The position numbers and the translations under genes were made by a program. DNA of 64,000 nucleotides from a bacterium. GTDB lineage: Bacteria; Auribacterota; UBA3054. The stretch is from contig JAFYXV010000004.1 of assembly GCA_017557885.1 (NCBI GenBank), forward strand, positions 62,001-126,000, read 5' to 3'. The notes beneath the pieces were generated by a model, which saw nothing but the letters and a program-made list of their open reading frames with translations, was not told the origin of the DNA and did not search any database. Each line of letters begins with the position of its first letter. Position 1 is the first letter of the stretch. Shown here one piece after another: positions 37,456-54,600 of the stretch.

Positions 37456-39831
37456 TCACCGCTTTCTCATCGCCGCCAAAGCAAGCAAAAGCAAAGCAAG
37501 CATCCCAACCGGCTCGGGCACAGCGTATCTGAAATACGGCGTTCCGACGCCTTCTTCAATATCCCAGATCTCATCGAAATCCCAGCCGACATAGGTTTCC
37601 TGCTGCTTCATCTCTTCAGGGCTGACGAAGCCGGTCACGCCCTCAACTCGTTCTACGCTGTTTGAATTGAAATACGAGTTTTTATACTGCCCTTTGCCAA
37701 GATAACTGGTTTCGGTTTCCACATCGGCGTAGCAATTGGAAATCACCGGTAAACTATCATTGAGGTCGTTAGCCACCAAAGCGTATCTGAAAGATCCTTT
37801 CGCGTAGCAATTTACCAAAAGAGAATTATAACTGTAATAAGCCAAACCGGCAATCATCAATTCAGGATGATCCGAAGTGTTATACATCTCAACGCATGAT
37901 TCGCTAATAACGCTTTCGTCCATATAACCAACCAATCCTGCATAATTATACGTAAGATCAGTTGGAATGTTTCCGTTAAAGCTACATTTGTCCATTGTGG
38001 AATTTATTAGCTCATAACATAAGCCTCCGGAGTGATCACAATATGACATATAACAATCAGACCTCACGTGACAATTGTATATGGAAGAATAACAGGTCAT
38101 ACCCGAAAGAAAACCAAGTTTAACACTTATTTTAAGATCAATTTCAGCATCTTCCAAGGATAAATTGCAAATTGTTCCCCCGTCAACATACCCGAACAAA
38201 CTGGAATGAATAAAAACATAATTATTAGTCGAACGCCAGCCAAGATACAGATTTTTAATAGTGTAATTTTGCCCGTCATAAACTCCGGAGAAAGGATGCT
38301 GAAGGTAGGAGGGATCTATTCTGTAGCGGTTGCTGAAGAAACCTATAGGATTCTTCATGGGCGTTTCGCTCATATCAAAGTCGCAAGTCTGAAGATAATG
38401 TCCGTTCAAAGGATATTCGGAATCAAATCCGATGTTGTCCAACTCATCGGGCTCGGACAAGAATTTAGCAAAATCGCCTTCAATAACGAGATCTTTTGTT
38501 ACCGCTACTGAGACTTCTTCCGCTGTATCCGTCAGGTCTCTCTTAAAACTAACGAAGGTGGTTTTCTGCGGTTCGTCAGGCGTTGCTTTGACAAGCAAAT
38601 TTTCGCCATAAAGATAATTTGTTTTGTTGGGTTCAAGCGTGATTTCGCCAAAGGCACAGGCGGGAACATACACTTTATAAGTGTTTTCGCCTAGGAATTT
38701 CCAATATGGTGTTGTTTCGCCTTCCTGAATTGACCAAACAGTGTCAAAATCCCAGTTCCTAAAAGTTGCTTGCTTTTTGATATCCTCAGACGATACGCCC
38801 GCTCCAAATTCGGTTCCTTTCATGAGATCAAAATCATAATAAGAACTGAAACAAACACAAGTGTTAGTTGTCAAAGCGCAAATACCGCCGACAGTTGGAT
38901 TCAATGTCATATCAGCGCTGGAAGTGGAATAACATTGCATTATGCCATAGTCGTTTGTTGTTGCCTGGCCGTATTCTTTGTAGATGTTTTCAATGGCGTT
39001 TGCGCAAATGCCACCAATATAGCCGTCTGATTTAACTTTCATATCAGCGTGGCAGTACCGAATATAAGTTTTGCCATAATTACGTCCACAGATTCCGCCG
39101 ATATAAGTTTCAGAATTTTTAAAGTACAATTTTTTCTCTATGTAGCCCGAGGCTTTGCAGTTGATTATGTAGTTATGATCGTTCTGTTCGCTATCATAAA
39201 TGCACAGTCCAACTATTCCGCCACCACTGTGAGATGCTTTGATTATCCCAACGAAAGAGCAATTTATGATTTTTGTTTTTCTAGCTTCGGCGACTATACC
39301 GCCGACATCACTGTATCCATGTATGATTCCGCTTACTTGGATATTAGTTATCACACTGGCGGAAGCATATGCTGCCAACGCTCCTCCTACCATAGTACTG
39401 CCGTTGTAGTAAGACAAATCATTCCCCATGGAAATATCTTCCAAGAAGACATTTTTGATCTCAGCGCCTGATAGTTTTTCAAATAGAGCGCAGCCTCTCT
39501 GAGAATGCAAACTTTTTATGGAAAAATTCTGCCCGTCCAGCACGCCGCAAAAACTGTGTTCTTTTCCATCAGAAGAACGTCCGGAATTGCCAATAGCAAG
39601 GAATTCTGGTTCCCAAGTTTTTGTTTCGCTTGCGTCAATGTCATTCTCCAAACGGAAAACACTTGATTGGCATTCAGCAATATTTTCCCCCATCCAAACC
39701 AAGTTTTCAACCTTGGTCAAAAGGTAAGGAGACTCTGCGGTGCCGTCGCCTTCCGGCTTTATAGCCTCGTTGGCGGCAAAAAGACAATTGGCAGCAAAAG
39801 CTAACAAGCAGGTTAAAAGAAGGTTTTTCAT
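37456..39831 (-). CDS. cassette A gene 3: GLUG beta-solenoid / InlB-like repeat protein with PEP-CTERM tail
   Basis: 791 residues from the ATG at 39831, which has AAGGAT upstream overlapping the previous stop. Order: signal peptide (about 1-19, MKNLLLTCLLAFAANCLFA); a first GLUG-type beta-solenoid opened by GTAESPYLLTKVENLVWM and FCGVLDGQNFSIKSL; a ~75-residue divergent InlB B-repeat-like domain (from about 380, ITLEPNKTNYLYGENLLVKA); a second solenoid opened by GFDSEYPLNGHYLQTCDFDM; and a PEP-CTERM sorting signal AVPEPVGMLALLLLALAAM followed by RKR. Such proteins are exported and anchored or released by an exosortase system. Paralogues are encoded at 47634-49934 and 52336-54600. Adhesion or matrix roles are inferred only. 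No exosortase gene is in the window. Confidence 0.85.
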   Translation of the reverse strand: MKNLLLTCLLAFAANCLFAANEAIKPEGDGTAESPYLLTKVENLVWMGENIAECQSSVFRLENDIDASETKTWEPEFLAIGNSGRSSDGKEHSFCGVLDGQNFSIKSLHSQRGCALFEKLSGAEIKNVFLEDISMGNDLSYYNGSTMVGGALAAYASASVITNIQVSGIIHGYSDVGGIVAEARKTKIINCSFVGIIKASHSGGGIVGLCIYDSEQNDHNYIINCKASGYIEKKLYFKNSETYIGGICGRNYGKTYIRYCHADMKVKSDGYIGGICANAIENIYKEYGQATTNDYGIMQCYSTSSADMTLNPTVGGICALTTNTCVCFSSYYDFDLMKGTEFGAGVSSEDIKKQATFRNWDFDTVWSIQEGETTPYWKFLGENTYKVYVPACAFGEITLEPNKTNYLYGENLLVKATPDEPQKTTFVSFKRDLTDTAEEVSVAVTKDLVIEGDFAKFLSEPDELDNIGFDSEYPLNGHYLQTCDFDMSETPMKNPIGFFSNRYRIDPSYLQHPFSGVYDGQNYTIKNLYLGWRSTNNYVFIHSSLFGYVDGGTICNLSLEDAEIDLKISVKLGFLSGMTCYSSIYNCHVRSDCYMSYCDHSGGLCYELINSTMDKCSFNGNIPTDLTYNYAGLVGYMDESVISESCVEMYNTSDHPELMIAGLAYYSYNSLLVNCYAKGSFRYALVANDLNDSLPVISNCYADVETETSYLGKGQYKNSYFNSNSVERVEGVTGFVSPEEMKQQETYVGWDFDEIWDIEEGVGTPYFRYAVPEPVGMLALLLLALAAMRKR

Positions 39832-39835
39832 ATCC

Positions 39836-40774
39836 TTATTCTCCATATTTAGCCTGGAAAATATCCTCTTCTGTGATATCATCCTTGGCGTTAAGTTTAT
39901 AGTACCAAAAATTAGAGTTTTTGGTGTTTTCGGCATAGTAACGTTTCGCGTTGCTTTGCCATTTGTTCATCAACTCTATCACTGATTCTTGAATTGGCAA
40001 AACATTAATATCGAATCTTTTCTTTGCGGTATCTAGTGTCTCGCATTCCGGCAAGGAGAATTTCTCTCCGTTCTCGGAATACCATTTGTTAAAATCGCTG
40101 AATCTCCAGTTCCCGCGTCCGGGAGTTTTGTAAACTTCCACGAGTTTTTCAAGCGTTTTATCGTTTTCCAGCGCCGAAGCCAGATATGGGAAAACGTGAT
40201 ATCCCAGCCCAGTTATTTCGCTGGCGAGCTGATTCAAAACCAATACGCGTGGTGTATCTCTTTCGTTTTCTTCCTGCCAGCAAGCATACCATTCTGTCCA
40301 TATGTTTGACATGTACTTCCTGCCTTCGTACCACCAGTAATAATGAAACAGCGTGGAAGGAATGGTCAAATCGTTTCCTTTGCCGCTAAGCCAAGGGAAG
40401 GCTATCGTTCCCAGAGAATCGAATCCGAAGCAAAGCTGCGTCAGCAAAAAAGCTCTGCGGTCGGCAAATGAAAGGGCCTTGTTTTCAAAGGTCTGCCCGT
40501 CGCCTAAACTTTCCACGCGATTGGTTATCTCGCCTCTTTCCAGCAGAGTCATGATCAACGGAAGCGCTTCAGAAACCGGAATGGCTTTGAAAGTTTTGCT
40601 TTCGCTATTCCAAATATCGATTTTTTCCTTAGGAATCTCCAGTTCTTTGTTTTGCTTGGCAAAATAAAGAGCGGAGGAATCGTAGAGCAAGTTTAGATAT
40701 TCTTCGCTGCTAACTGCCGCTAAAATATCCCCTACGCAAATCAGACAAAAACAAGCAAATAATATTTTTTTCAT
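39836..40774 (-). CDS. cassette A gene 2: secreted ~310-residue helical protein, new family
   Basis: 312 residues; no family recognised. It has a signal peptide (about 1-19) and a probably all-helical body. Paralogues lie at 46700-47629 and 51409-52329. Shared marks: VSEALPLIMTLLERGEITNR, FGFDSLGTIAFPWLSGKG, YYWWYEGRKYMSNIWTEWYA, CWQEEN, GLGYHVFPYLA, NKWYSENGEKFSLPECETL and the C-terminal EEDIFQAKYG. The high Trp/Tyr content and near-fixed cysteines suggest an extracytoplasmic fold. It lies 12 bases after gene 1, and its stop overlaps the ribosome-binding site of gene 3, so the three are made together. Function unknown. Confidence 0.75.
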   Translation of the reverse strand: MKKILFACFCLICVGDILAAVSSEEYLNLLYDSSALYFAKQNKELEIPKEKIDIWNSESKTFKAIPVSEALPLIMTLLERGEITNRVESLGDGQTFENKALSFADRRAFLLTQLCFGFDSLGTIAFPWLSGKGNDLTIPSTLFHYYWWYEGRKYMSNIWTEWYACWQEENERDTPRVLVLNQLASEITGLGYHVFPYLASALENDKTLEKLVEVYKTPGRGNWRFSDFNKWYSENGEKFSLPECETLDTAKKRFDINVLPIQESVIELMNKWQSNAKRYYAENTKNSNFWYYKLNAKDDITEEDIFQAKYGE

Positions 40775-40786
40775 TTTCGTTCTCCT

Positions 40787-42175
40787 TTATTCCTCTTCTA
40801 ATATTGGGGCGTATTTAACAGGGGTATAAGAATTAATAGGATGTTCAGTGTAGTAATCCAAAAAGTCTTTCCCGTTATGATTTAAGAAAAAACTATTCTC
40901 TAATTTCATTATGAACATATTCCCTATATTACCGTTGCAAGAATCAGATCTTCTTGCAGCCAATAATCCGCCGTAGAACAAAACGATACTGTCACCTATA
41001 TTACCAGTTGGATATAAATTTATTGGCCATCTCACATCAGTGTAAAAATCCGAAGCTCCGCCAAAAGTATAATATGAAGTGTAATATTTCCCGTTAGGAT
41101 CTAATGCAATAGGACAATTGCTGTCTCCGTATATTACACAATCATCTCTAACAATAAAAGGATGTCCAAAGGTATTGCCATAAGGATCTACCGCATATGC
41201 AGGAGCGTTATAACTGCCGTCTTGTTCTTCCATATACTCATCCGCCCAATCGTCGACAACAGAATATTCGCAGTCGATGAGCGCTTGATAACCACTGTTT
41301 AACGAGCTTCTCTCGTTATAATTAGGTTGCCTTCCGTGTATATCGGCACAGGATCGATAGCGAAAGTTAGCAATTTCAACATCGCCGGAAGAAGATTGGC
41401 GTCTATAGGTTATCTTTATATTGCCGTTGCCTATTGCCGTTCCCTCCAAGTATATGAACTTGTCAAAAATTTTACCCTTTAAATCACCAATCCCACAATA
41501 GAGATTTGTCGTTGTCCCGGGATTTGCCATAGGCTTATATAATTGATAAGCGTTTTTTGTATATAAACGCAAATGACTCGGCATTTCCACTTTTAATCTA
41601 ATATAATCAACATTCATCCAGCTAGGAGAATGGGATATTTTCAAAGGCAACAAATCGTCATCATCAAATCCGTTCTTTTCTCCGAAAAGATAGTCAGGTG
41701 TTTCATGCCCTGTATTATCGCTATCGATATTAAAGTGAATATGTCTTGTTATGCCGTTGCCATTAGAATAATCATAATCACCGTTATGAATTGTATTTGT
41801 TGTTGTCAAAGAAAACGCCGGTTCTCCGACGTTCACCACATAAGAAGCATAGATATATTTCACCTCGTGAGTTCCATGTTCCTCGTAATGAAGTCTGGCG
41901 TTTAGTATGAAAGGTTGGTCTCCAATGTCTAAGAAGACTTCGTAATCCCAAATGCTGCTTTTAATATAATCCAATGGATTGCCGTTTAAGTCTGTACAAG
42001 TCCAATAATGTCCTTTGGGATTGCCATTCAGATTTCCGCTTACCGCCATATAATAGCGAACATTGTAACTGTACTCAGCTATATAGCTCGCCCCGAAAAT
42101 GTGAAGCACCTTTTCCTCGTTTGACGCCAAAGCGCTCAAAGCTAACAAAAGAAAAAAGAGTAAGATTTTTTTCAT
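40787..42175 (-). CDS. cassette A gene 1: secreted ~460-residue protein with DDD-LP motif
   Basis: 462 residues from the ATG at 42175 with an AAGGAG site 6 bases upstream; a longer in-frame start at 42274 has none. The signal peptide is MKKILLFFLLLALSALASN. Shared with 45241-46677 and 49963-51399: HFNIDSD, then DDDDLLPLKISHSPSWMNV, FIYLEGTAIGNGNIKI, YRSCADIHGRQP, YNAPAYAVD, YYTFGG, and a C-terminal MKLENSFFLNHNGKDFLDYY. The acidic DSD...DDD-LP segment resembles a calcium-loop type region seen in large surface proteins of Planctomycetes and others. Four cysteines recur. Function unknown; probably outside the cytoplasmic membrane. Confidence 0.75.
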   Translation of the reverse strand: MKKILLFFLLLALSALASNEEKVLHIFGASYIAEYSYNVRYYMAVSGNLNGNPKGHYWTCTDLNGNPLDYIKSSIWDYEVFLDIGDQPFILNARLHYEEHGTHEVKYIYASYVVNVGEPAFSLTTTNTIHNGDYDYSNGNGITRHIHFNIDSDNTGHETPDYLFGEKNGFDDDDLLPLKISHSPSWMNVDYIRLKVEMPSHLRLYTKNAYQLYKPMANPGTTTNLYCGIGDLKGKIFDKFIYLEGTAIGNGNIKITYRRQSSSGDVEIANFRYRSCADIHGRQPNYNERSSLNSGYQALIDCEYSVVDDWADEYMEEQDGSYNAPAYAVDPYGNTFGHPFIVRDDCVIYGDSNCPIALDPNGKYYTSYYTFGGASDFYTDVRWPINLYPTGNIGDSIVLFYGGLLAARRSDSCNGNIGNMFIMKLENSFFLNHNGKDFLDYYTEHPINSYTPVKYAPILEEE

Positions 42176-42227
42176 AAATCTCCTTTGATGTTTTGGACAA
42201 TGGGAAACCATTATTACACAAATAATT

Positions 42228-42256
42228 ATTTTACAATAATTCTTATTCTTATGCAA
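42228..42256 (-). promoter_or_regulatory. promoter of cassette A
   Basis: On the minus strand TTGCAT (as ATGCAA at 42251-42256), 17 bases, TAAAAT (as ATTTTA at 42228-42233). It lies about 50 bases before the gene 1 start. A mirror-image candidate for the plus-strand operon is TTGTTT at 42375, 17 bases, TAAAAT at 42398-42403. Confidence 0.55.
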
Positions 42257-42337
42257 TAAACAGATTTCCGCCATCCTCTGTTTTTAGTAAGAGCTTCTTT
42301 GGATAAAGCGCTTAATATAAGAAGCTTATATAAAAAC

Positions 42338-42346: not shown

Positions 42347-42409
42347 TAACGTTTCCGTTCGTCGCAACCAATTATTGTTTTAAAAACGTGAATATTGTAA
42401 AATAGACAT

Positions 42410-44356
42410 ATGAAATATATGCGTATGTTATTATTATTCTTGGTGTTCTTGTCCGCCTCGAATGTCTCCGCAATCATTGACATACAAGGCGGCGTTTGGT
42501 TGCTATCCACCCTCGGCGGCACGAATACTACTGTGGCCGAGACATTAATGCGCATAGAAAATGATGCCAAGAACGGGAATTTTAAAGAAGCGATAAACAA
42601 ATCAAAAGAATTCCGCGCCGAAAACGACATCAGCGATTGTTATCTTACGAATGGAGAACTTCTTCCCCTGACTCTGGAAGTGATGGAGTTCTATTACAAA
42701 TACGGCAAGGACATCAAAAATCCGCAAGTCGAAAAAGAATTGCCGCCCATAATCAAGAAATACGCCAAAGAAGCCAAAGGCAAGCAATGGTACGCCTACA
42801 GATACGCCCTTCAGTATCTGGAATTCCATTACAGGAGAGCAGGCGACACCAACAACATGATCGGGGCGATGAAAGACATCGTAAGCTATGACGTTTACGA
42901 CAAATATCAGCTGGAAAGGCTTCTTCGCTACGCCGGCACATATCCCAATAAAGCGGAAGAGATACGCAAATACTGGAACGAGCTTTCAAACTCTGACGTA
43001 AAAAACAACGTCGAGACGGAGCTAGTTTACATATTTGATACCGGACTTCCAAAAGAAGAAAAATTCAAGCTCATAAACGAATGGTTCGCTAAAAACACTT
43101 TGGCCATATACCGGGTAATGCAAACCGCGATCGAAAGATCCGGTGAATTTGTCATAAAGGAATACCCTGAAAAGAAGATAGCGTTCGTTGAAACCTTGAA
43201 ATTGCTGGCTTTGCGTCAGCCTCCCGTCTCCGAACGCCTTCCCGTTCTCGCGCTTATCAAGAACGCCCTCTCCGATAAGGAATTAGCTGCGGGCGCTACG
43301 TCCAAGCCGCGGGACGAGGAGCTTAGCGCCGCCAGTTTAGAAAAGACGCTGTCAGGCAACGGGTCTGATTGGGAAAACATGTGTGAGAGCGTCGCCTTCA
43401 TTTGGAGCGAGCACTCCAACCAGCGCTACAAAGGCAACCTTTCCCTTGAGCAGACCATTTCCGCCTTGAACAAAGCCGGCAAGCTTAAGGAAAAACTCCA
43501 GGATCCCAACGACGACCTAAGCGACATAGAGGACTATAGAGACCTCATAAAGATCCCAGACATCGCCGGACAAATATACCACCTGGCGGAGAAGCTGTTC
43601 TGGACAGGCCAGTACGGCAAAGCGAAGACTTGCTTCGAATTCCTTATCTCGGAAGACAACAAGGACGAGTTCGGCGTAGGCGCCTCCCACTTCTTCCTGG
43701 GCAGGATGGCCAAAGACCTTCCTCCCGACTTAATGCCCTTCTCCAACAGGGAGGAAAGAAGCTATTACGCGCTTGAACACCTGCTTAAGGTCAACACTTA
43801 CGCCACCTGTCTGACATATATTTCCTATTCGTACATTATGGCGGCTGAAATATTTCACGAAATGGGCCTGAACCACCCCGCCCTGGCGCTTCTTTTGATA
43901 GACGTCCCGAGCATAGACTGGAACTCCGTTAAAGCCATGCGGCATACCGCCGCCGCCCGTTATTGCTTCCTTACAGAAGATTCCACGAACCTTACCAGGC
44001 ACGTTCAGGAAGCGCTCCGCTACTGCAAGGAAAGCGATCACGAATATCAGGTCCTGGAGGAATACCACAACGGGATCTCTCCGGAACTGTGGAAATACTG
44101 CGCCGACAAGCTTTTCACCAGCGAAGACCGCAACAATGCCATAGTCTCCGCCTTGGACGACGAAAAAGCCCAAGCTTGGCGCGAGGAACTCTTCAACGCG
44201 CTTTTGCACATTTGGCCGAAGCCTCCGGAAATGCCGGAAGGCATGGCCACCAACCGAGTATTGAACAACAACATCTTCCCCTTCAGTATAGACGAGGAAC
44301 TATCCTCCCTTATCCGGAAGCAGAAAGAAGCAAGCGAAGGCAAAGATGAAGAATAG
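42410..44356 (+). CDS. secreted alpha-helical (TPR-like) protein, first gene of the plus-strand cassette operon
   Basis: 648 residues with a signal peptide (about 1-21, ending NVSA). The body is helical, with TPR-like pairs such as ENDAKNGNFKEAINKSKEFR, LFWTGQYGKAKTCFEFLI and AAEIFHEMGLNHPALALLLI. No exact family recognised. Its N-terminal ~230 residues are paralogous to the next gene: GGVWLLSTLGG / GDVWHMSGL, then YAKEAKGKQWYAYRY / YADMAKGKRYWAYKM. The start is uncertain: the ATG at 42410 almost coincides with the transcription start predicted from the TAAAAT at 42398, so Met at 42419 or 42425 is possible. It overlaps the next gene by 11 bases. Its GC content is higher than that of the cassettes that follow. 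A scaffold or assembly role for the cassette proteins is inference. Confidence 0.7.
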   Translation: MKYMRMLLLFLVFLSASNVSAIIDIQGGVWLLSTLGGTNTTVAETLMRIENDAKNGNFKEAINKSKEFRAENDISDCYLTNGELLPLTLEVMEFYYKYGKDIKNPQVEKELPPIIKKYAKEAKGKQWYAYRYALQYLEFHYRRAGDTNNMIGAMKDIVSYDVYDKYQLERLLRYAGTYPNKAEEIRKYWNELSNSDVKNNVETELVYIFDTGLPKEEKFKLINEWFAKNTLAIYRVMQTAIERSGEFVIKEYPEKKIAFVETLKLLALRQPPVSERLPVLALIKNALSDKELAAGATSKPRDEELSAASLEKTLSGNGSDWENMCESVAFIWSEHSNQRYKGNLSLEQTISALNKAGKLKEKLQDPNDDLSDIEDYRDLIKIPDIAGQIYHLAEKLFWTGQYGKAKTCFEFLISEDNKDEFGVGASHFFLGRMAKDLPPDLMPFSNREERSYYALEHLLKVNTYATCLTYISYSYIMAAEIFHEMGLNHPALALLLIDVPSIDWNSVKAMRHTAAARYCFLTEDSTNLTRHVQEALRYCKESDHEYQVLEEYHNGISPELWKYCADKLFTSEDRNNAIVSALDDEKAQAWREELFNALLHIWPKPPEMPEGMATNRVLNNNIFPFSIDEELSSLIRKQKEASEGKDEE

Positions 44357-45230
44357 ACTGTTATTATTGATTGCTCTGCTTTCTTTCTGTGCGCCAGTAT
44401 ATGCCGACGTTCCCGTTAACGGCGACGTCTGGCATATGTCCGGCCTTGCGCCGGACAATCACCAGGAATGGAACAAACTCTTCCTGGAAGCCGAGGATTT
44501 GTCCGCCCAAAGAGCATACACCGAAGCCAGAATGATCGTCGACGACCTTATCAAGGATATCGGCACGAACAAGTTCAAACTAAAGAACGGCGACGACGCG
44601 GAGCTAACTCTGGCCGCCTGGAGATTAAGACTGTTTGTCCGCGAACCTAAGAACGCTCCCATAGCGTACCAAGAGATCGACGACACCCTAAAGCGCTACG
44701 CTGATATGGCCAAAGGCAAACGTTACTGGGCCTATAAGATGATGTACGTCATAAGCGAAGACTTCCACTATCACCGCCAAGAGATACAAAAGCACGACGA
44801 GGCCATGGCCGATTGCTTCTTATACGATCCCCAAGACAGCATCCTATATCTAATAGACTGCTACTACCATCACCCCTGGAATTTTGAACATATGACCAAT
44901 TTCTGGGCCATTTACGACAAGAACGGCGGAAGAAAAGATCCGGAAGTTGAAATGGCAAGGATCTTCACCACCGGCGACAGGGAAAGCAAAATCAGCAAAG
45001 GCATCCAGTGGCTCGACAAGAACGCCGACGCTGATCAAACTGTTATAGGCCTTTGCTTAAAAGGGATCGATCTGAATCTAAGCGGAGACGAAAAAGAAGA
45101 GAAACTTTATCGCGCCGCGCTTCGCAAACTAGCTTTATCGAACACCAACGACACAAAACGCCTTCCGATTTCCTCAATGGCTCTGCAAGAACTTGAGAAA
45201 CTGGACGCGATAAATAAATGGAATAAATAA
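44346..45230 (+). CDS. secreted alpha-helical protein, shorter paralogue of the preceding gene
   Basis: 294 residues with a signal peptide ending at about residue 20 (PVYA). It matches the N-terminal part of the preceding 648-residue protein in order and motif (VNGDVWHMSGL; YADMAKGKRYWAYKMMYV; later NFWAIYDKNGG against KYWNELSNSD) and lacks that protein's C-terminal TPR-like half. Its ATG lies inside the end of the previous gene (11-base overlap). The first gene of cassette B begins 10 bases after its stop, so it is in the same operon. Family and function unknown. Confidence 0.7.
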   Translation: MKNRLLLLIALLSFCAPVYADVPVNGDVWHMSGLAPDNHQEWNKLFLEAEDLSAQRAYTEARMIVDDLIKDIGTNKFKLKNGDDAELTLAAWRLRLFVREPKNAPIAYQEIDDTLKRYADMAKGKRYWAYKMMYVISEDFHYHRQEIQKHDEAMADCFLYDPQDSILYLIDCYYHHPWNFEHMTNFWAIYDKNGGRKDPEVEMARIFTTGDRESKISKGIQWLDKNADADQTVIGLCLKGIDLNLSGDEKEEKLYRAALRKLALSNTNDTKRLPISSMALQELEKLDAINKWNK

Positions 45231-45240
45231 AAGGAGAAAT

Positions 45241-46677
45241 ATGAAAAAACTTTTAACTTTCTTTGTGCTTTTAAGCGCAATTGCTCTGGCATCTAACGAT
45301 CCGCCAGTGCTAGTAATCCATGGCCCAAATTATGTTGCCGCTTCAAGTTATGGCGTAGATTACCATATGGGAATTGGCGGACATTTAAACGGAGATCCTG
45401 TTGGACGATTATGGTGGGTTATTGATGAGAACGGAGTTCAACAAGATGATTGGATTGTGAGTGGAGGAACAAGCATAGATGCAAAGATTAATATTTTGTC
45501 TGATTGCACAATATATGCGAGGTTTCATTATAAGGAATGGCGTACGGAAATAGATAAATATATATACGATTCATATGAAGTAAAAACTGGGACGCCGACA
45601 TTTACGGTGGAAGATGCCGGAAGTATTCACAATGGCCAGTATGATACCACGATCACAGGGATTACAACTAGGGTAATTCACTTTAATATTGACAGAGACG
45701 AAGAAGGAGATCTGTCTGATAGTTATAAGCCGGATTATCAAATCAATGGAGAAAAACATCTAAGTCAAGACGACGATATTTTGCCACTGTTTATAAGCCA
45801 TTCTCCTTCTAGAATGAATGTTAAGTATATTAAACTGGTTGTTGAATCTCCGCATATACGCTTATGCAGAATCAATCCAGGACTTCCGAATGTTTGTATT
45901 CCAATAACAACAACAGGTTCAAGTACGGTTTATTGCGGGGATGGCAATAATTTAGGTAGGATATTTGATCGGAATTTATACTTGGAGGGCATGAGAATAA
46001 GGGTAGGCAATTTAAAAATTAAATATGTGTTGGATAATGGATATTCAACCACGATTGCTGACCTGAGGTATAGAACGTGTGCGGATATAGCTGGACGCCA
46101 AGAAATGGCGATCGATAACAGTAGTACTTTTCCATACGCTCAATCGTTATCGCTTACTGGCTGTGAGTTTTCTTTGTATGATACATATAATATAACGAAC
46201 GCTCCTCCGTTTTTAACCGATAGCAATGATTACAACGCTCCCGCCTTAGCGGTTGATTACTTTTGGGATGTGCTTAGAACCCCATTTAAAGTTAAGGTAG
46301 ATGAATGCGGGACGCCAGGCAATCCTTTTGTATATAGTAACAGTTGTTGGTACACGTCTTACGAAGCCTTTGGAGGATCTGTGGCTTTTTATGAATCGTC
46401 GTTATGGGAGCCAAAATTGTTTAACGGTGTTTCTCTAAATAATGCTCGCGTTATAAATTACGAGGATTTATCCACAGCGATTAGATCATCTTATGAACCT
46501 GGCATTTGCCCGGATTGGAAAATGTTTTATATGAAGTTAACTGGGCTTTATGGTTGGTATAGCGATGCCGTTTTGCATCACAGAGGCGAGGTGTTGTATC
46601 AATATTATTATGATTTGCATTCATCCAACAATCAATCAAATTGGCTTCCGAAAACATACGGGTTACAATTGGAATAA
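45241..46677 (+). CDS. cassette B gene 1: secreted ~478-residue protein with DDD-LP motif
   Basis: 478 residues; signal peptide MKKLLTFFVLLSAIALAS; AAGGAG ribosome-binding site 6 bases before the ATG. It is the paralogue of 40787-42175 and especially of 49963-51399, with the same N-terminal NDPPVL, DKYIYDSYEV and GTPTFTV. Shared motifs: HFNIDRDEEG, DDDILPLFISHSPSRMNV, YLEGMRIRVGNLKI, CADIAGRQ, YNAPALAVD, YTSYEAFGG and MFYMKL with a late HHRGEVLYQYYYD. Probably an exported beta-rich protein. Function unknown. Confidence 0.75.
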   Translation: MKKLLTFFVLLSAIALASNDPPVLVIHGPNYVAASSYGVDYHMGIGGHLNGDPVGRLWWVIDENGVQQDDWIVSGGTSIDAKINILSDCTIYARFHYKEWRTEIDKYIYDSYEVKTGTPTFTVEDAGSIHNGQYDTTITGITTRVIHFNIDRDEEGDLSDSYKPDYQINGEKHLSQDDDILPLFISHSPSRMNVKYIKLVVESPHIRLCRINPGLPNVCIPITTTGSSTVYCGDGNNLGRIFDRNLYLEGMRIRVGNLKIKYVLDNGYSTTIADLRYRTCADIAGRQEMAIDNSSTFPYAQSLSLTGCEFSLYDTYNITNAPPFLTDSNDYNAPALAVDYFWDVLRTPFKVKVDECGTPGNPFVYSNSCWYTSYEAFGGSVAFYESSLWEPKLFNGVSLNNARVINYEDLSTAIRSSYEPGICPDWKMFYMKLTGLYGWYSDAVLHHRGEVLYQYYYDLHSSNNQSNWLPKTYGLQLE

Positions 46678-46699
46678 CTATAAGATAGGAGATAAAATC

Positions 46700-47629
46700 A
46701 TGAAAAATATATTAATATTATTTTTGGGCTTGACAATTTCAATTAATCTCTTTGCTCTGGAAGAAACGGAGTATTTGCGTTTGCTTTATAATGCGTCAAA
46801 AATAACTCCGATCTTAAGGGCTAATATTGACAAGGAGAAAGCCAAAGATTATCTATCCGTATCGGATGTAGCGCAATTTAATTCACTGCCTCCTTCTGAA
46901 GCGCTTCCTGTATTGATCGCTTCTTTGGAAAAAGGCGCGATCACCAATCGCATCGAGACTTTTGACAACATCCAGGCAACTAATATGGTAGTGGAATTCG
47001 CTAATTACAAGGCTTATTACCTGATGGGCTTGTCGTTTGGGTTCGATTCTGTAGGAACGGTTGCTTTCCCTTGGCTGACAGGCATCGGCCAAGATCTAAC
47101 TATACCAGTCACGCAGTATCATTACTTCTGGTGGTATGAAGGAAGAAAATATATGCCCAATATCTGGGAGAACTGGTATGCTTGCTGGCAGGAAGAAAAC
47201 GGCAGAGAAAAACCCAGAGAATTAGTCTTGAATCAACTGTCCAATGAGATAGCGGGATTCGGATATCATATCTTCCCTTATTTGGCTGATACGATAACAA
47301 CGGATAACACATTAACTAATGTGTTGCTCTCCTTGAGAGGCCCGCAACACGGTGGATGGATCTTCGAGGATTTTTCCAAGTGGTACAGGGAAAACAAAGC
47401 TAGGTTTACTCTGCCTGAATGCGAAACTCTGAAAAAGACAATGGAACGCACATCGCTCGATAAAATGCCCATTAGCAAATCCAATAAGGATGACATGCTA
47501 AGGTGGCAGAAAAACGAGGAACAATTCTATACCACCAATAGTTTCAACAATTACTATTGGTATTACAAAATCAACAGCAAGGAAGATGTTTCGGAAGAAG
47601 ACATTTTCCAAGCAAAATATGGGGATTAA
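46700..47629 (+). CDS. cassette B gene 2: secreted ~310-residue helical protein
   Basis: 309 residues from the ATG at 46700 (TAGGAG upstream). A longer in-frame start at 46550 lies inside gene 1 and is rejected. Signal peptide about 1-20. It matches 39836-40774 throughout: SEALPVLIASLEKGAITNRIE, FGFDSVGTVAFPWLTGIGQD, WWYEGRKYMPNIWENWYACW, FGYHIFPYLADT, FSKWYRENKARFTLPECETL and EEDIFQAKYGD. It sits 4 bases before gene 3. Function unknown. Confidence 0.75.
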   Translation: MKNILILFLGLTISINLFALEETEYLRLLYNASKITPILRANIDKEKAKDYLSVSDVAQFNSLPPSEALPVLIASLEKGAITNRIETFDNIQATNMVVEFANYKAYYLMGLSFGFDSVGTVAFPWLTGIGQDLTIPVTQYHYFWWYEGRKYMPNIWENWYACWQEENGREKPRELVLNQLSNEIAGFGYHIFPYLADTITTDNTLTNVLLSLRGPQHGGWIFEDFSKWYRENKARFTLPECETLKKTMERTSLDKMPISKSNKDDMLRWQKNEEQFYTTNSFNNYYWYYKINSKEDVSEEDIFQAKYGD

Positions 47630-47633
47630 TCTC

Positions 47634-49934
47634 ATGAAAAATATTATAGCCTTAATAATACTGATTGCGGCGACGTTTGCGTTCGCTGTCAACGAAGCTG
47701 TCAAGCCGGAAGGTGAAGGAACCGCTGAGTCTCCATACGTACTGACAAAAATTGAAAATCTTGTTTGGATGAACAACAACATGAGAACTTGCCAATCAAG
47801 TTTTTTCTGTCTGGGTAACGATATTGACGCCAGCGAAACGGCGGGATGGGAAACACAATTCGTACCAATAGGAACAGCAAAGACCAGCACCGGCAAGTCC
47901 TACAATTTTCAAGGAGTATTAGACGGAAAAAATTTTGCTATAAAAAATTTGCATAGCAGAAACAGCGGTTTAATACTTCATTTGGATGGAGCTGTAATCA
48001 AGAATCTGCATCTTGAAAATGTAAACTTGGGCAGACGTTATGCGGGAATAAACAAATCCGGTGGACTGACTCCAGAGTGTAGTAATAGCGTAATAACAAA
48101 TGTTCATGTTTCTGGGAAGATCAAAGGGACATATGAAGTGGGAGGCATTTGCGGTGAAGTTGAAGGATCACAGATTGTTAATTGTTCTTTCGTGGGATTT
48201 ATAAACGTATTTGGCGACGCTTCCGGCGAATATAGTTATGGCGGGATAGCCGGTTATGCAAGCTATAGCGATCTTAGCTATTGTAAAGCTTCCGGCTATA
48301 TAAACTGTGTTGACGGTTTTGCTCGCGTAGGCGGCATATGCGGATTTGTTTACGGAATGGATAATTATGATAAATACATTCCCCGCGTTCGTTATTGCAT
48401 CGCTGACATGAAAATTACGGCAGAAGGAAACATTGGCGGGATAGTGGGGCAGAATTTTATAGAAAATATTGTGAGATATCCAGGGTCACCTTCTTATGTT
48501 GCAACCGAAATGGGCCTCCTTGATAATTATTCCCTAAGCGTAGCCTATACGTCCCCAGAAAACACCGTTGGAGGTATTTGCGCGACTTTCAGCGAAAACA
48601 CCACTACCTCTTCGGAAAATTACTATGACAAGACAGGTATCAACGGCACTGTCGTTGGAAAAGGTTTGTCTCCAGAGAATATGAAAAAGCGGTCTTCTTA
48701 TACCAAGTGGGATTTCAACAAAGTTTGGACGATCAATGAAGGAGAATCAACCCCTTATTGGAAGCTGAGCAATGACAAACCTTATAGAATTGCTTATGTG
48801 TCAAATTTCTTAGGAACGCTTGGCGTTGAGCCGGAGGAAAAAAGCTATGCGTTTAAAGAGAATATAACCATAAACGTTACGACTCCTAAAAACGTCACTT
48901 TTTTCGGCATCCAAGGCGATATTGAAACTACAGAGACCAGTATTTCAGTCACTTTGCAAAAAGATCTAGCCATTGAAGGTGAGTTTGCCAGATACATTAA
49001 GACCGCAGGTGAATTCTTAAAAATCGGCAAAGATAAGGATTATCCCGCAGGCGGGCATTATATTCAATCCGTCAACATAAATATGCCCGAAATTGATGAT
49101 CCAACGCTGGGATCTTTTTGGGGCGTCTATGACGGGAACAATCGTGTGATCCGGGATGTTAAATTCAATACGAAGTCTTCGACTGCCATAGGTTTGTTTG
49201 GCAGCGTTTCTGAAGCCAAGATAAGCAACCTGGGAATATTGGAAGCCGAGAATAACAGCGGAAGCCGCTATTTTGGTTTTTTGGGAGGAGACGTTAACTA
49301 TTCGGAAATAAGCAATTGTTATGTCTATACTGATATGAATTTGGCAGGCGCCAACAATGCCGGAGGCTTATTCAATATTTTTGAGAAATCAAGGATGATA
49401 AGATGCGAATTCAAAGGCAACATTTATTCTGCGGACGTTTGGTTCGGCGGGCTGGTTTCTCAGGCGAAAAAAAGCTCGTTTGAAGAGTGCTCGGTGGAAA
49501 TGTTTACACAGTCCGGTGTAATAAAAAGCAAAATTGCTGGGCTAGTATTTTCAGCCTATGAAACTGATTTTGTAAATTGTTACGCGAAAGGAGACTGCTT
49601 CAATTATGCTTTAGTAGCGCCTTCGCCAAATCAAGAATTGTCTTTCTCTAATTGTTATGTGTTTGCTGAAAACAACTGCTCTTTGCCCAACTCGACTTTT
49701 TTAAACTGCTATTTCAATTCCAACTGCGTTGCTGCCGTTGAAGGCGTAACTGGTTTCGTCAGCGAAGAGGAAATGAAGAAACAGGAAACTTACGTCGGCT
49801 GGGACTTTGACGAGATCTGGGATATCGAAGAGGGAGTTGGAACGCCGTATTTCAGATACGCAGTGCCGGAGCCGGTTGGAACATTCCTGCTTCTCTTGTT
49901 GCCCTGGCTATTGGTTAAAAGACATTCAAATTGA
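47634..49934 (+). CDS. cassette B gene 3: GLUG beta-solenoid / InlB-like repeat protein with PEP-CTERM-like tail
   Basis: 766 residues from the ATG at 47634. The layout is the same as the paralogue at 37456-39831: signal peptide (about 1-20), first GLUG solenoid (GTAESPYVLTKIENLVWM ... FQGVLDGKNFAIKNL), InlB B-repeat-like domain from about residue 385 (LGVEPEEKSYAFKENITINV), second solenoid (IGKDKDYPAGGHYIQSVNIN), then AVPEPVGTFLLLLLPWLLV with a basic end KRHSN. The tail differs from the RKR ends of the A and C copies. The last ~45 residues before it (VEGVTGFVSEEEMKKQETYVG, then FDEIWDIEEGVGTPYFRY) are nearly identical in all three. No terminator follows; cassette C begins 28 bases later. Confidence 0.83.
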   Translation: MKNIIALIILIAATFAFAVNEAVKPEGEGTAESPYVLTKIENLVWMNNNMRTCQSSFFCLGNDIDASETAGWETQFVPIGTAKTSTGKSYNFQGVLDGKNFAIKNLHSRNSGLILHLDGAVIKNLHLENVNLGRRYAGINKSGGLTPECSNSVITNVHVSGKIKGTYEVGGICGEVEGSQIVNCSFVGFINVFGDASGEYSYGGIAGYASYSDLSYCKASGYINCVDGFARVGGICGFVYGMDNYDKYIPRVRYCIADMKITAEGNIGGIVGQNFIENIVRYPGSPSYVATEMGLLDNYSLSVAYTSPENTVGGICATFSENTTTSSENYYDKTGINGTVVGKGLSPENMKKRSSYTKWDFNKVWTINEGESTPYWKLSNDKPYRIAYVSNFLGTLGVEPEEKSYAFKENITINVTTPKNVTFFGIQGDIETTETSISVTLQKDLAIEGEFARYIKTAGEFLKIGKDKDYPAGGHYIQSVNINMPEIDDPTLGSFWGVYDGNNRVIRDVKFNTKSSTAIGLFGSVSEAKISNLGILEAENNSGSRYFGFLGGDVNYSEISNCYVYTDMNLAGANNAGGLFNIFEKSRMIRCEFKGNIYSADVWFGGLVSQAKKSSFEECSVEMFTQSGVIKSKIAGLVFSAYETDFVNCYAKGDCFNYALVAPSPNQELSFSNCYVFAENNCSLPNSTFLNCYFNSNCVAAVEGVTGFVSEEEMKKQETYVGWDFDEIWDIEEGVGTPYFRYAVPEPVGTFLLLLLPWLLVKRHSN

Positions 49935-49962
49935 TAAACAACTATCATAATTGAGGAACAGT

Positions 49963-51399
49963 ATGAAAAAACTTTTAATCTTCATTGCACTTTTAAGCGC
50001 AATTGCCTTAGCGTCAAACGATCCGCCGGTATTGCGTATTTCTGGGCAAAGTTATGTAGCCAAATATAGCTATGGCGTAAAATATCACATGGGAGTTGGA
50101 GGCAATTTAAACGGTATTCCTAAGGGACGCACTTGGGAGGTTAGAGACGAGGATAATATTCCTCAAAACTGGATAATAAGTGGGCAAAACAACATAGATG
50201 CCAAGATAAACATTCTCGGCAATTGTACTATATATGCCACATTACATTATGAGGAAGAAGGAACACATTTAGATAAATATATATGCGACTCGTATGAGGT
50301 AACGACTGGAACCCCGACATTCACAGTAGATTATGCCGGAAGTATATACGACGGACAATTTGATACTACGGTCACTGGAGTCGCAACCAGAGTAATCCAT
50401 TTTAATATTGATTCTGATTATTATCGAGCTGGTGTAACTACAGTGCCTGTAAATCTGGGCATAATAACGCCAGATTTTTTATTACAGCACAAAACGTCAG
50501 GAGAAGATGACGATATCTTGCCTTTCTTTATAAAGCATTTCCCTTCCCAAATGTATGTTAAATGTCTTAGGATAGGAATAGAAATTCCAAATCATTTGGC
50601 TTTGTATAGAAAGGGCAGTGCGTTAGAAGATTATTTTATGCCGTTGGGAACAACAGGAACATCATCAGTTGTCAATTGTGGCGATGACGAAACCTTGGGA
50701 CGAATATTTGATGGTTATTTATATTTAGAAGGAACGGCTTTGGGTGTTGGACATTTGAAGATTAATTATTTAAATTTGGACGGAGGCATTGTTTCGCAAA
50801 TTGCTGATTTAAAGTATAAAACTTGTGCCGATGTCAGTGGCAGACAACCTCTATCAAACGGCGCAACGTTGGAAGATATGGAGTTTAACAATCAATTAGA
50901 CGGATGCGAATGGTCTTTGTTTGACGAATCAAATTCAAGTTTTAGCAGTTCATATGATTATAACGCTCCTGCTTTTGCGGTAGATCATAATTGGAATGTT
51001 GTAAACAATCCTTTTAAGGTTTGGTGGGAAGACGTAGGAACTCCTGACAATCCGATAATAGTGGATCCGGATTCGGGTAAATATTTTACATCGTATGAGG
51101 CTTTTGGAGGAGTTAGAGAGTTTTTTGAAAGCGCATTGTGGACACCGCAATTAAGCTTGGGCGGTAGTCTTAATGATAGCGTGGTTTTGTATTATTTTAC
51201 CCAGGTCGCAGGGTATTATTCTTGGGCGGCTCTTCGTTCTTGGTCTACAACAGGAACGTTGCCGGCTTGGAATATGTTTTATATGAAACTCGACAGCGGT
51301 CCCATTCTTAATCACAGAGGAGAAGTGTTGTTCGATTATTCTTCCGAATTAAATTATTCCCCCGGTCCTATGAAATTTATGCTAAATTCTAATAATTAA
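49963..51399 (+). CDS. cassette C gene 1: secreted ~478-residue protein with DDD-LP motif
   Basis: 478 residues from the ATG at 49963 (GAGGAA upstream). Signal peptide MKKLLIFIALLSAIALAS, nearly the same as in the cassette B protein, and the following 120 residues are also close (ASNDPPVLRISGQSYVAKYSY, DKYICDSYEVTTGTPTFTVD), so B and C are the most recent duplicates. Core motifs: HFNIDSDYY, DDDILPFFIKHFPSQMYV, YLYLEGTALGVGHLKI, CADVSGRQP, YNAPAFAVD, FTSYEAFGG and LNHRGEVLFDY. Function unknown. Confidence 0.75.
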   Translation: MKKLLIFIALLSAIALASNDPPVLRISGQSYVAKYSYGVKYHMGVGGNLNGIPKGRTWEVRDEDNIPQNWIISGQNNIDAKINILGNCTIYATLHYEEEGTHLDKYICDSYEVTTGTPTFTVDYAGSIYDGQFDTTVTGVATRVIHFNIDSDYYRAGVTTVPVNLGIITPDFLLQHKTSGEDDDILPFFIKHFPSQMYVKCLRIGIEIPNHLALYRKGSALEDYFMPLGTTGTSSVVNCGDDETLGRIFDGYLYLEGTALGVGHLKINYLNLDGGIVSQIADLKYKTCADVSGRQPLSNGATLEDMEFNNQLDGCEWSLFDESNSSFSSSYDYNAPAFAVDHNWNVVNNPFKVWWEDVGTPDNPIIVDPDSGKYFTSYEAFGGVREFFESALWTPQLSLGGSLNDSVVLYYFTQVAGYYSWAALRSWSTTGTLPAWNMFYMKLDSGPILNHRGEVLFDYSSELNYSPGPMKFMLNSNN

Positions 51400-51408
51400 G
51401 GTAAGAAA

Positions 51409-52329
51409 ATGAAAAATATAATTCTTTTGGTTTTATTGTCAATTACCTTGGCGGTCAAAGCTGCTTATGCCGATTACGCGTCATTGCTTTACAAAGCTTC
51501 GGCTTTTGAAAGCATAATAGCTCTAGACAAGGATAATGCAGACAAATACGACGAATTGAAAGCCGCCAGCGTTCAATTGTCGTCTGTTCCAGTTTCAGAA
51601 GCATTGCCGGAACTGATGTCTTTGTTTGAAAGAAAAGTTATCACCAATCGTTTGGAGCGCATTGGCGACATAACGATAACCAATTATGCTGTGGGTTATG
51701 CCTATAAAAAAGCATTTTTGTTAACAGGTCTCACATTTGGTTTTAATTCCTATGGTCATATAGCTTTTCCTTGGCTAACCGGAAAAGGACAGCTAATGAC
51801 GATTCCCTCAACAATGTATTCTTTCTTCTGGTGGTATGAAGGAAGGCGCTATGTTGAGCAAATTTGGAACGCTTGGTATGCTTGCTGGCAAACCGAGTGT
51901 GGAAGAGAAAATCCCAGATCTCTTGTCAAGAAAACGCTTGCTGATGAAATTTGCGGATTAGGGTATTACGTTTTTCCGTTCCTTTATCAAAACTTGGAAA
52001 ACGACAAGAGCCTTAACGAGATCGTCTCAATGTTCAATGAACCAAGCCATGGCAACTGGGGTTTTAAGAATTTTTCCGAATGGTATAGCATAAATTCCAA
52101 TAGGTTTGTTTTGCCGACCGTTGAAACCATTTCGGTTGCAGGCAAAAGATTTGAGATATCCAATCTTCCTGTAAGCAAAATGACCCTCGATAGTATGCAA
52201 GCGTGGGAAAAGGCTGCTTCAGATTTTTATAGATCCAATAATATATCATCAAATTATTGGTACAATAAAATTCAAAATAAAAATATTATCAGCGAGGAAG
52301 ATATATTCCAAGCTAAATTTGCGAGGTAA
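51409..52329 (+). CDS. cassette C gene 2: secreted ~306-residue helical protein
   Basis: 306 residues; signal peptide about 1-21 (ending AYA). It is the paralogue of 39836-40774 and 46700-47629: VSEALPELMSLFERKVITNRLE, FGFNSYGHIAFPWLTGKGQL, FFWWYEGRRYVEQIWNAWYA, GLGYYVFPFLYQNLENDKSL, NFSEWYSINSNRFVLPTVETI and EEDIFQAKFAR. The conserved PECETL cysteine is missing here (PTVETI). Gaps of 9 and 6 bases to its neighbours place it in the operon. Function unknown. Confidence 0.75.
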   Translation: MKNIILLVLLSITLAVKAAYADYASLLYKASAFESIIALDKDNADKYDELKAASVQLSSVPVSEALPELMSLFERKVITNRLERIGDITITNYAVGYAYKKAFLLTGLTFGFNSYGHIAFPWLTGKGQLMTIPSTMYSFFWWYEGRRYVEQIWNAWYACWQTECGRENPRSLVKKTLADEICGLGYYVFPFLYQNLENDKSLNEIVSMFNEPSHGNWGFKNFSEWYSINSNRFVLPTVETISVAGKRFEISNLPVSKMTLDSMQAWEKAASDFYRSNNISSNYWYNKIQNKNIISEEDIFQAKFAR

Positions 52330-52335
52330 AGTACT

Positions 52336-54600
52336 ATGAAAAAAGCATTGCTGTTTTTGCTGCCTTTTATTTTGACATCATCTATTTTCGCTGCAAATGA
52401 AGCAATCAAGCCGGACGGCGAAGGAACGGCAGAGTCCCCCTATGTTCTGACAAGAATCGAGAATCTTGTCTGGATGGGGGATAATATGAAAGATTGCAGA
52501 TCAAGCGTTTTCTGTTTAGGAAACGATATTGACTGCAGCGAAACGAAGTATTGGGAATCCCCTTTTGTATCAATAGGCTGGCCAAAAGAAATGTATGGAC
52601 AAGCCTATAATTTTTTAGGCGTATTAGATGGTAAAAATTATACTATCAAAAATTTATATTCTAAAAGTGCTGATGGTTTAATACATGGATTATGGGGGGC
52701 GGAGATAAAAAATTTATATCTTGATAACATGAATTTAGGAAGTTTTTCTAGCGGCGCTAGAGGCGGTTTGACTCAAACTTGTAATGATAGTGTTGTATCA
52801 AATGTTCATGTTTCAGGACAGATTTCTGGTTCAGGAGATTGCGGAGGAATTTTCAGTCATGTTTATAGTTCGAAGATCGATAATTGTTCCTTTATCGGAA
52901 TTATAAACGGATTTGGCGATAGCACACTAGGGGGGATTGCTAGTTTCGCTGATTATAGCACCTTAATTTTTTGCAAAGCTTCTGGCTTTATAAATAACAT
53001 AAACGGAGCTTCAGATATTGGCGGCATCTGCGGTTTGGCAGTGGGAGCCCCCGATTTTAATGATTATTGTATTCGTTATTGCATTGCTGACATGAAAATT
53101 AGTGCAAAAGGAAATATTGGTGGGATAGTGGCGCAGAACTATATGTACAATGTTAAACATTATCCAGACGGAGATGTCTTATACGAAAATTGTGGACTCA
53201 TAAACAATTATTCCTTATGTGTTGGAGATGTTTCTTCTGCTGACAATGCCGGTGGAATTTGCGCTGTGTGCAGCACAAACTGCATTGACATAGGTAATTT
53301 TTATGACAAAACGGGAATTAGCGGCACGCAATTTGGAATAGGTTTGTCTTCGGACAAAATGAAAAGGAGATCTTCCTTTTCTAATTGGGATTTTGATAAT
53401 GTTTGGGCTATCCATGAATTTGAATCCACACCATATTGGATGATTGGAGGAGAAAAACCATATAGAGTATTCTATTCAACAAAATTCCCTGGAACATTAA
53501 ATATTACTCCAGAGAAAAGAAGCTACGCTTTTAATGAGAATATATCTATAAACGTTACGATTCCTGAAAACAGTGTTTTTATTGGATTTCAAGGTGATCT
53601 TGAAGGGACCGAAACAAATATTTCCCTTGTTCTGAAGAAAGATTTGGCAATAATCGGTAAATTCGCAAAATATATTAGTTCGGCAGACGATTTTATTAAG
53701 ATTGGTAGAGATCAAGATTATCCACAAGATGGATACTATATTCAAACCACAGATTTGAATATGTCAACAACAGATTATCCTGTTCCAGTCTCTTTTTGTG
53801 GAGTTTATGACGGTGGTAATCATGTTATCAGCAATGTTATGTTCAATAATCCTTCCAGGTATATGGGACTGTTTTCTTCGGTTTCAGAAGCTAAGATATA
53901 CAATCTTGGAATTAGAGATGTTAAAAACAATACAAGAGTTTCATATTTTGGCCTTATGGGAGGAGGGGCTATAGCTTCAGAAATAAGTAATTGTTATATT
54001 AGCACGAGCGTAGAGTTAAATGGGTCAAATTATTCAGGAGGTTTTTTCAGTTCTTTTGAAAAGTCACAAATGATTAATTGTGAGTTCCGAGGAGAATTAT
54101 ATAGTTCTGTTTATTTCGGAGGTTTGACATACTTTGCGGCCCATAGCTCGTTTGAAGGATGTTCCGCTGAGATCTTTGGTTCGTCCAATATCAGCAAGGA
54201 TAAAATAAGCGGGTTGATGTTTTTAGGGACGCCCAACCTTTTTTTGAATTGTTATGTTAAGGGCGATTGCTTTAATTATGCTTTCACAGCGCCTACCAGT
54301 AACTCAGAATTAACTTTTTCCAATTGCTATGCTTTTGCTGAAAGCGAATGCGTTTTAGAAAAGGCAAATTACATTAACTGTTATTTCAATTCCAACTGTG
54401 TTGAGCAAGTTGAAGGCGTAACAGGCTTCGTCAGCGAAGAGGAAATGAAAAAGCAGGAAACTTACGCTGGCTGGGACTTCGACGAGATCTGGGATATCGA
54501 CGATGGCGTTGGTACGCCGTATTTCAGATACGCTGTGCCGGAGCCGGTTGGGATGCTTGCTTTGCTTTTGCTTGCTTTGGCGGCGGTGCGAAAGCGGTGA
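52336..54600 (+). CDS. cassette C gene 3: GLUG beta-solenoid / InlB-like repeat protein with PEP-CTERM tail
   Basis: 754 residues; signal peptide about 1-20 (ending SIFA). Layout as in the two paralogues: first GLUG solenoid (GTAESPYVLTRIENLVWM, FLGVLDGKNYTIKNL), InlB-like domain from about residue 378 (LNITPEKRSYAFNENISINV), second solenoid (IGRDQDYPQDGYYIQTTDLN), then AVPEPVGMLALLLLALAAV and RKR. The final ~60 codons and the terminator are nearly the same at the DNA level as in the cassette A copy on the opposite strand and are GC-richer than the body of the gene. It is the last gene of the eight-gene plus-strand operon. Confidence 0.85.
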   Translation: MKKALLFLLPFILTSSIFAANEAIKPDGEGTAESPYVLTRIENLVWMGDNMKDCRSSVFCLGNDIDCSETKYWESPFVSIGWPKEMYGQAYNFLGVLDGKNYTIKNLYSKSADGLIHGLWGAEIKNLYLDNMNLGSFSSGARGGLTQTCNDSVVSNVHVSGQISGSGDCGGIFSHVYSSKIDNCSFIGIINGFGDSTLGGIASFADYSTLIFCKASGFINNINGASDIGGICGLAVGAPDFNDYCIRYCIADMKISAKGNIGGIVAQNYMYNVKHYPDGDVLYENCGLINNYSLCVGDVSSADNAGGICAVCSTNCIDIGNFYDKTGISGTQFGIGLSSDKMKRRSSFSNWDFDNVWAIHEFESTPYWMIGGEKPYRVFYSTKFPGTLNITPEKRSYAFNENISINVTIPENSVFIGFQGDLEGTETNISLVLKKDLAIIGKFAKYISSADDFIKIGRDQDYPQDGYYIQTTDLNMSTTDYPVPVSFCGVYDGGNHVISNVMFNNPSRYMGLFSSVSEAKIYNLGIRDVKNNTRVSYFGLMGGGAIASEISNCYISTSVELNGSNYSGGFFSSFEKSQMINCEFRGELYSSVYFGGLTYFAAHSSFEGCSAEIFGSSNISKDKISGLMFLGTPNLFLNCYVKGDCFNYAFTAPTSNSELTFSNCYAFAESECVLEKANYINCYFNSNCVEQVEGVTGFVSEEEMKKQETYAGWDFDEIWDIDDGVGTPYFRYAVPEPVGMLALLLLALAAVRKR

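What the first reader, a model, noticed from the sequence alone, without database searches (positions are those of the whole stretch)
37456..54600. A three-gene secreted-protein cassette present three times, possibly an undescribed surface system
Three families always occur in the order 1-2-3: a DDD-LP secreted protein, a Trp/Tyr-rich secreted helical protein ending EEDIFQAK, and a GLUG/InlB-like/PEP-CTERM protein. One copy is on the minus strand (42175 to 37456) and two are in tandem on the plus strand (45241-49934, 49963-54600). Gaps between genes are 4-28 bases, so each set is co-expressed. Families 1 and 2 match nothing I can name. Conserved order despite strong divergence argues that the three products work together, for instance as a secreted pair plus a surface-anchored receptor or scaffold, with copies diversifying under selection. 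Cellular role is inference.
Basis: partly seen in the sequence, partly recalled or inferred. Interest (0 to 1): 0.78.

Follow-up and report, generated by a model that had tools for sequence, protein, structure and literature searches.

The report
Paired secreted-protein cassettes in rumen bacteria
Bacteria of an unnamed genus from the stomachs of ruminants carry many copies of a pair of exported proteins that are almost always encoded together; shared companion genes tie the pair to the loci of Rhs-type exported, toxin-like proteins, and the copies in this window look like surface-linked versions that have lost the likely catalytic cysteine.

Summary
The three copies are real and at the stated coordinates. 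The unit is drawn wrongly, though. The tight unit is F1-F2: 31 of 32 F1 genes found in one genus have F2 immediately downstream, and the two trees agree. F3 (GLUG, PEP-CTERM-like) is optional (19 of 31 pairs) and in one cassette does not track its F1-F2 type. Outside the genus, F4 genes sit directly upstream of RHS/YD-repeat proteins (three loci), or of an Ig protein with a transglutaminase-like motif. F1 is Ig-like + a beta domain resembling the PAD middle domain in structure only + a C-terminal DUF7689 domain (over cut-off in two paralogues). F3-linked F1 proteins, window copies included, all lack the NCxA cysteine; 9 of 10 unsplit F3-less ones keep it. Cassettes are AT-rich, change position between sister species, and carry mosaic alleles. 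Best reading: an effector-like secreted pair from Rhs-type loci, here turned into a Cys-less, surface-linked form. Function is untested. The organism is known only as ruminant-gut MAGs.

The parts
40787..42175 (-). F1, cassette a: signal peptide, Ig-like domain, PAD_M-like beta domain with DDDDLLP, degenerate DUF7689-like domain (NAPA for NCxA)
39836..40774 (-). F2, cassette a: secreted helical partner
37456..39846 (-). F3, cassette a: GLUG / M26_N-like repeats, PEP-CTERM-like tail
42410..44356 (+).
44346..45230 (+). F4N-only paralogue (294 aa)
45241..46677 (+). F1, cassette b
46700..47629 (+). F2, cassette b
47634..49934 (+). F3, cassette b
49963..51399 (+). F1, cassette c
51409..52329 (+). 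F2, cassette c
52336..54600 (+). F3, cassette c
54623..54650 (.). strong terminator-like hairpin (12 pairs plus T run) closing the plus-strand gene run

Best explanation
F1-F2 is a tightly linked pair of exported proteins that stands, behind the companion genes F4N/F4C, where related bacteria of the same order have RHS/YD-repeat proteins. F1 is effector-like: an Ig-like and a beta domain carry a C-terminal DUF7689 domain with a Cys/His motif. F2 is its matched helical partner, either an inhibitor (immunity) or a binding scaffold. The window copies belong to a subfamily in which the cysteine of that motif is lost and a GLUG protein with a PEP-CTERM-like tail (F3) is added. These copies most likely act without catalysis, by binding at the cell surface. 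They diversify by allele replacement and by cassettes changing places. Shown: gene order, linkage, tree congruence, motif loss, mosaicism, RHS context of F4. Inferred: physical binding of F1 to F2, surface anchoring, descent from an effector locus, loss of enzymatic activity.
For: 31 of 32 F1 have F2 next downstream; distance correlation 0.83 against at most 0.29 in 2000 permutations. Full-length F1 matches in 44 genomes of the phylum lie at these F1-F2 loci, all in one genus. F1 C-terminus: DUF7689 at E 1.6e-5 and 1.1e-4, both over the curated cut-off. NC, HAAR and IH motifs in most F3-less F1; no Cys in any of 20 F3-linked rows. F4N-F4C directly upstream of RHS-repeat proteins in L117, L118, L119, and of an Ig protein in L116. 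Ig-like segment fused to F2 in L053 and L085. AT-rich: F1 37% GC against 55% for other genes in the fetched loci. Mosaic F1a: synonymous difference 0.74-0.90 across residues 120-360 against 0-0.14 at its 3' end and 0.11-0.35 in neighbouring genes. Order a-, b+, c+ in the window, b-, c+, a+ in G007. One exosortase in the genome.
Against: Tree congruence and fixed order also follow if the two genes merely duplicate and move together. The C-terminal domain is the best conserved part of F1 (mean identity 0.28 against 0.21 for the Ig part), unlike the variable toxin tips of polymorphic toxins. F2 is also fused to a GH27 alpha-galactosidase in several genomes, which does not suit a dedicated inhibitor. 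F3 link and Cys loss map to one branch of the F1 tree, so they count as a single event. The PAD_M-like resemblance is not seen by sequence, and the C-terminal third of F1 was not modelled with confidence. No function was tested.
Confidence: 0.42

Rival explanations
1. Effector-immunity pair: Cys-bearing F1 is an antibacterial papain-like toxin and F2 the periplasmic immunity protein; the window copies are decayed or decoy versions, and stand-alone F2 genes are orphan immunity genes.
For: F2 directly downstream and co-inherited; F2 arrays without F1 (L077) and F1-F2-F2 (L062); F4 next to RHS-repeat proteins; papain-like toxins, HEAT-type immunity and tandem immunity genes are described for polymorphic toxin systems (PMC3482391).
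Against: Most copies lack the Cys; the C-terminal domain does not vary more than the rest; F2 fused to GH27; no convincing PADLOC match.
Confidence: 0.22
2. Surface complex for binding or degrading plant or host polymers in the rumen: F1 and F2 bind, F3 anchors, enzymes such as GH27 or subtilases join in some species.
For: GH27 fusion to F2; subtilases with PEP-CTERM-like tails within the G007 cassettes; all products with signal-peptide-like starts; exosortase present.
Against: No carbohydrate-binding family in F1, F2 or F4; no transporter or sugar-use genes recur beside the loci; the F4 link is to RHS proteins, not to polymer use.
Confidence: 0.2
3. Order is only duplication inertia: an AT-rich gene group that duplicates and moves together, without the products working together.
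For: Congruent trees and fixed order are expected from duplication as a block; F3 and F4 come and go.
Against: F1-F2 linkage persists at about 20-25% identity and among different neighbours, while F3 and F4 are lost or gained around it; Ig-like segment fused to F2.
Confidence: 0.12

Closest known systems
Polymorphic toxin systems with RHS repeats (PMC3482391)
   Same: Export signal, Ig-like parts, papain-like domain at the C-terminus, cognate downstream gene, tandem partner genes; F4 genes directly precede RHS proteins in sister families
   Different: F1 has no RHS repeats; its C-terminal domain is conserved rather than exchangeable; many copies lack the likely catalytic Cys; the partner is also found fused to GH27
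Inactive transglutaminase / bacterial Ig segments of polymorphic toxins (PMC3482391)
   Same: Papain-like module next to Ig domains with lost catalytic residues, proposed there to anchor the toxin at the surface by binding peptides
   Different: There N-terminal to RHS repeats in one chain; here a separate protein with DUF7689, C-terminal
DUF7689 (PF24738)
   Same: Two F1 paralogues score over the curated cut-off
   Different: Window copies lack the NCxA Cys and show no match themselves; the family has no known function
PEP-CTERM / exosortase surface sorting
   Same: F3 ends PEP + hydrophobic stretch + basic tail; exosortase gene present
   Different: F1, F2 and F4 carry no such tail
Peptidylarginine deiminase middle domain (PAD_M)
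   Same: Structure comparison Z about 10 over 164 residues, rmsd 4.1
   Different: No sequence support; no PAD_C catalytic domain found

Membership tests
Polymorphic toxin-immunity system | Exported protein with adjacent cognate partner gene downstream | tested here: met
   31 of 32 F1 with F2 next downstream, congruent trees
Polymorphic toxin-immunity system | Conserved N-terminus with exchangeable C-terminal toxin domain | tested here: not met
   C-terminal domain is the best conserved part of F1
Polymorphic toxin-immunity system | Intact catalytic toxin domain | tested here: not met
   For the window copies: Cys absent in all F3-linked F1; present in 9 of 10 unsplit F3-less F1 elsewhere
Polymorphic toxin-immunity system | Toxicity neutralised by partner | not testable with these tools
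   needs expression experiments
DUF7689 (PF24738) | Profile match over curated cut-off | tested here: inconclusive
   met by L075 (26.1 bits) and L079 (23.3 bits), cut-off 22.6; not by window copies, which are homologous to them along the whole length
RHS/YD-repeat proteins | RHS repeats in the protein | tested here: not met
   no PF05593 match in F1; repeats present in the F4-linked proteins of L117-L119
PEP-CTERM surface proteins (F3) | C-terminal PEP + hydrophobic stretch + basic residues, with an exosortase in the genome | tested here: met
   tail read by eye, exosortase over cut-off
PAD_M domain | Sequence profile match and Ca2+ ligands | tested here: inconclusive
   fold similarity Z about 10; profile comparison no better than column shuffles
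Anti-phage defence systems | PADLOC profile match | tested here: not met
   only one weak row, E 0.005, for F4N
HEAT-repeat proteins (F2) | Helical solenoid with HEAT similarity | tested here: inconclusive
   helical model pLDDT 82; best Z 6 to importins, within the range expected for helical models

The most novel reading that the evidence does not exclude
An undescribed family of exported two-protein systems (F1 with a DUF7689 domain, F2 helical partner, F4 helper pair) that takes the place of the RHS protein in an Rhs-type export locus, with a derived branch that gave up catalysis and became a recombining, surface-linked binding system.
Probability: 0.35. Interest if true: 0.72.

Novelty: new variant of a known kind. 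Interest (0 to 1): 0.55.

Why it matters
If right, it shows an effector-like module losing its likely catalytic residue while gaining a surface-linked companion, names a helper pair (F4N/F4C) that marks RHS-type export loci in this order of bacteria, and gives a gene context and a partner for the uncharacterised DUF7689 domain.

Tried and rejected
Known-family matches for F2 and F4: none in Pfam, and none for F2 in NCBIfam or PDB sequences. PAD_M membership of F1: suggested by structure comparison, not supported by profile comparison. Positive selection on F1: rejected, dN/dS 0.1-0.25; the divergence is near saturation at silent sites, so replacement by old alleles fits better. Simple inversion across the long inverted repeats at the ends of F3a and F3c: does not by itself give the G007 order, since F4 keeps its orientation. 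Mobile-element origin: no plasmid or phage match for F1, no viral-contig relative of F4. Other recurring neighbours: the recurring groups found are orthologous flanks of shared sites or common families; FGE-sulfatase genes recur but the genome has 39 matches. PDB matches for F2: no convincing fold. Scan for a DUF7689 profile in the own genome: nothing, but nothing rang in the controls either. A literature search for DUF7689 found no paper.

Full report
Observation. Within each family the three copies share 42-58% identity to the first copy aligned. Between carB (34279-37374) and a gene with an FGE-sulfatase domain (55298-56584) the cassettes are AT-rich: 41.0, 40.8 and 38.4% GC against 57.3% for carB. 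The strongest terminator-like hairpin closes cassette c at 54623-54650. The plus-strand run 42410-54600 has gaps of at most 28 bases and could be one operon.

A missed family. Between the divergent cassettes lie 42410-44356 and 44346-45230. The first is F4N+F4C fused; the second is homologous to F4N alone. In other loci F4N and F4C are separate neighbouring genes. F4 has a signal-peptide-like start, looks TPR-like (weak TPR_2 matches only), and its C-terminal part usually ends near TNRxLNNN. F4 lies near 18 of 31 F1-F2 pairs.

Survey. Profiles of F1, F2 and F3 were run on ORFs of 39 fetched loci from eight genomes of one genus. Loci were first chosen by F2 hits, but an independent search with an F1 profile over 44 genomes of the phylum gave full-length matches only at the same sites. 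After removal of duplicate loci, 32 F1 genes remain; 31 have F2 immediately downstream, and the other (L059) has a split F2 upstream. F1 and F2 distance matrices correlate at 0.83, permutations at most 0.29. F3 is near 19 of 31 pairs. F2 also occurs without F1: fused to GH27 alpha-galactosidase (L052 and orthologues), fused to an Ig-like segment (L053, L085), and alone or in arrays (L076, L077). F1 and F2 were seen only in this genus, apart from one weak Ig-only match (G008), whose locus turned out to be L116. The named records are MAGs from rumen or reticulum of buffalo and yak.

RHS context. F4C was found in two other families of the same order. In L117, L118 and L119 F4N-F4C stand directly upstream, same strand, within 37 bases or overlapping by 4, of proteins of 1764, 1438 and 1533 aa with RHS repeats (E 7e-55 to 5e-18). 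In L116 they precede a 451-aa protein whose N-terminal Ig part matches F1 (E 1e-5) and whose C-terminal part has, by eye, a transglutaminase-like Cys motif; a 203-aa secreted protein follows. So the same helper pair precedes different exported proteins. A published survey of polymorphic toxins describes papain-like toxin domains, HEAT-type immunity proteins, tandem immunity genes, and catalytically dead transglutaminase domains next to bacterial Ig domains, proposed to anchor toxins (PMC3482391).

F1 anatomy. The AlphaFold model gives a confident Ig-like domain (about 20-125) and a second beta domain; the C-terminal third is below confidence. The second domain resembles the PAD middle domain in structure (Z 10.2, rmsd 4.1 over 164 residues of 1wd9), but profile comparison with the PAD4 segment is no better than column shuffles. 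The C-terminal domain is DUF7689 by Pfam in L075 and L079. Aligned rows show NC, HAAR and IH in most F3-less copies. All 20 F3-linked rows lack the Cys; of ten unsplit F3-less F1, nine keep it and L067 does not. L066 and L084 are split; L066 keeps the NC motif on its first half. On the unrooted tree this is one split, so one event. That Cys and His are catalytic is inference from the motif.

F2 anatomy. The model is helical, pLDDT 82, with no clear PDB match. Invariant Trp, Arg, Glu and Pro residues cluster in WWYEGR...IW...CW..E...PR.

Evolution. Sister species G007 has the same three F1-F2 types between the same flanking genes, but in the order b-, c+, a+, with subtilase genes and an extra F3 gene added. 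F4 and flanking genes differ at 0.11-0.35 of silent sites, F2a at 0.17. F1a differs at 0.74-0.90 over residues 120-360 yet 0-0.14 at its end. Sharp boundaries of this kind point to replacement by divergent alleles rather than rapid substitution. In cassette c the F3 does not follow its F1-F2 type.

Reading. The simplest account is an exported pair belonging to Rhs-type loci, of which the window holds the Cys-less, F3-linked branch. The effector-immunity rival applies best to the Cys-bearing branch. Binding, toxicity and location are untested, and co-inheritance alone does not prove that F1 and F2 touch.

Noticed in passing
L052:8568-10841 and orthologues in L068, L074, L078, L081, L086: F2 domain fused to a GH27 alpha-galactosidase with its C-terminal beta domain; apparently one conserved locus in several species of the genus (Pfam run on L052 only).
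   Followed up: partly
L053:9630-10952, L085:264-1628: Single proteins that join an F1-like Ig segment to an F2 domain.
   Followed up: partly
G000:C4:40500-59500 and G000:C6:30500-49500 (L049, L050): The same stretch appears on two contigs with the same gene predictions, probably a redundancy of the assembly, so one F1-F2 pair is counted twice in the raw searches.
   Followed up: partly
window 55298-56584 and genome G000: FGE-sulfatase (SUMF1-like) domain: 39 matches in a 2.2 Mb genome, an unusually large family.
   Followed up: partly
L041:6440-8566, L041:10973-13087: Two subtilase genes with PEP-CTERM-like tails inside the G007 cassettes, absent from the window region.
   Followed up: partly
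L041:15619-16925: A helix-turn-helix plus DUF3990 gene and a small neighbour inserted between F3 genes of G007.
   Followed up: no
L116:1826-3804: Ig plus transglutaminase-like protein followed by a 203-aa secreted protein, behind F4N/F4C.
   Followed up: partly
L118:2514-6830: RHS protein with a distinct C-terminal region that holds a HEQRH motif, possibly a metallopeptidase tip.
   Followed up: no
window 37429-37680 and 54376-54627: 252-base inverted repeat, 85% complementary, at the ends of F3a and F3c; could serve recombination between cassettes.
   Followed up: no
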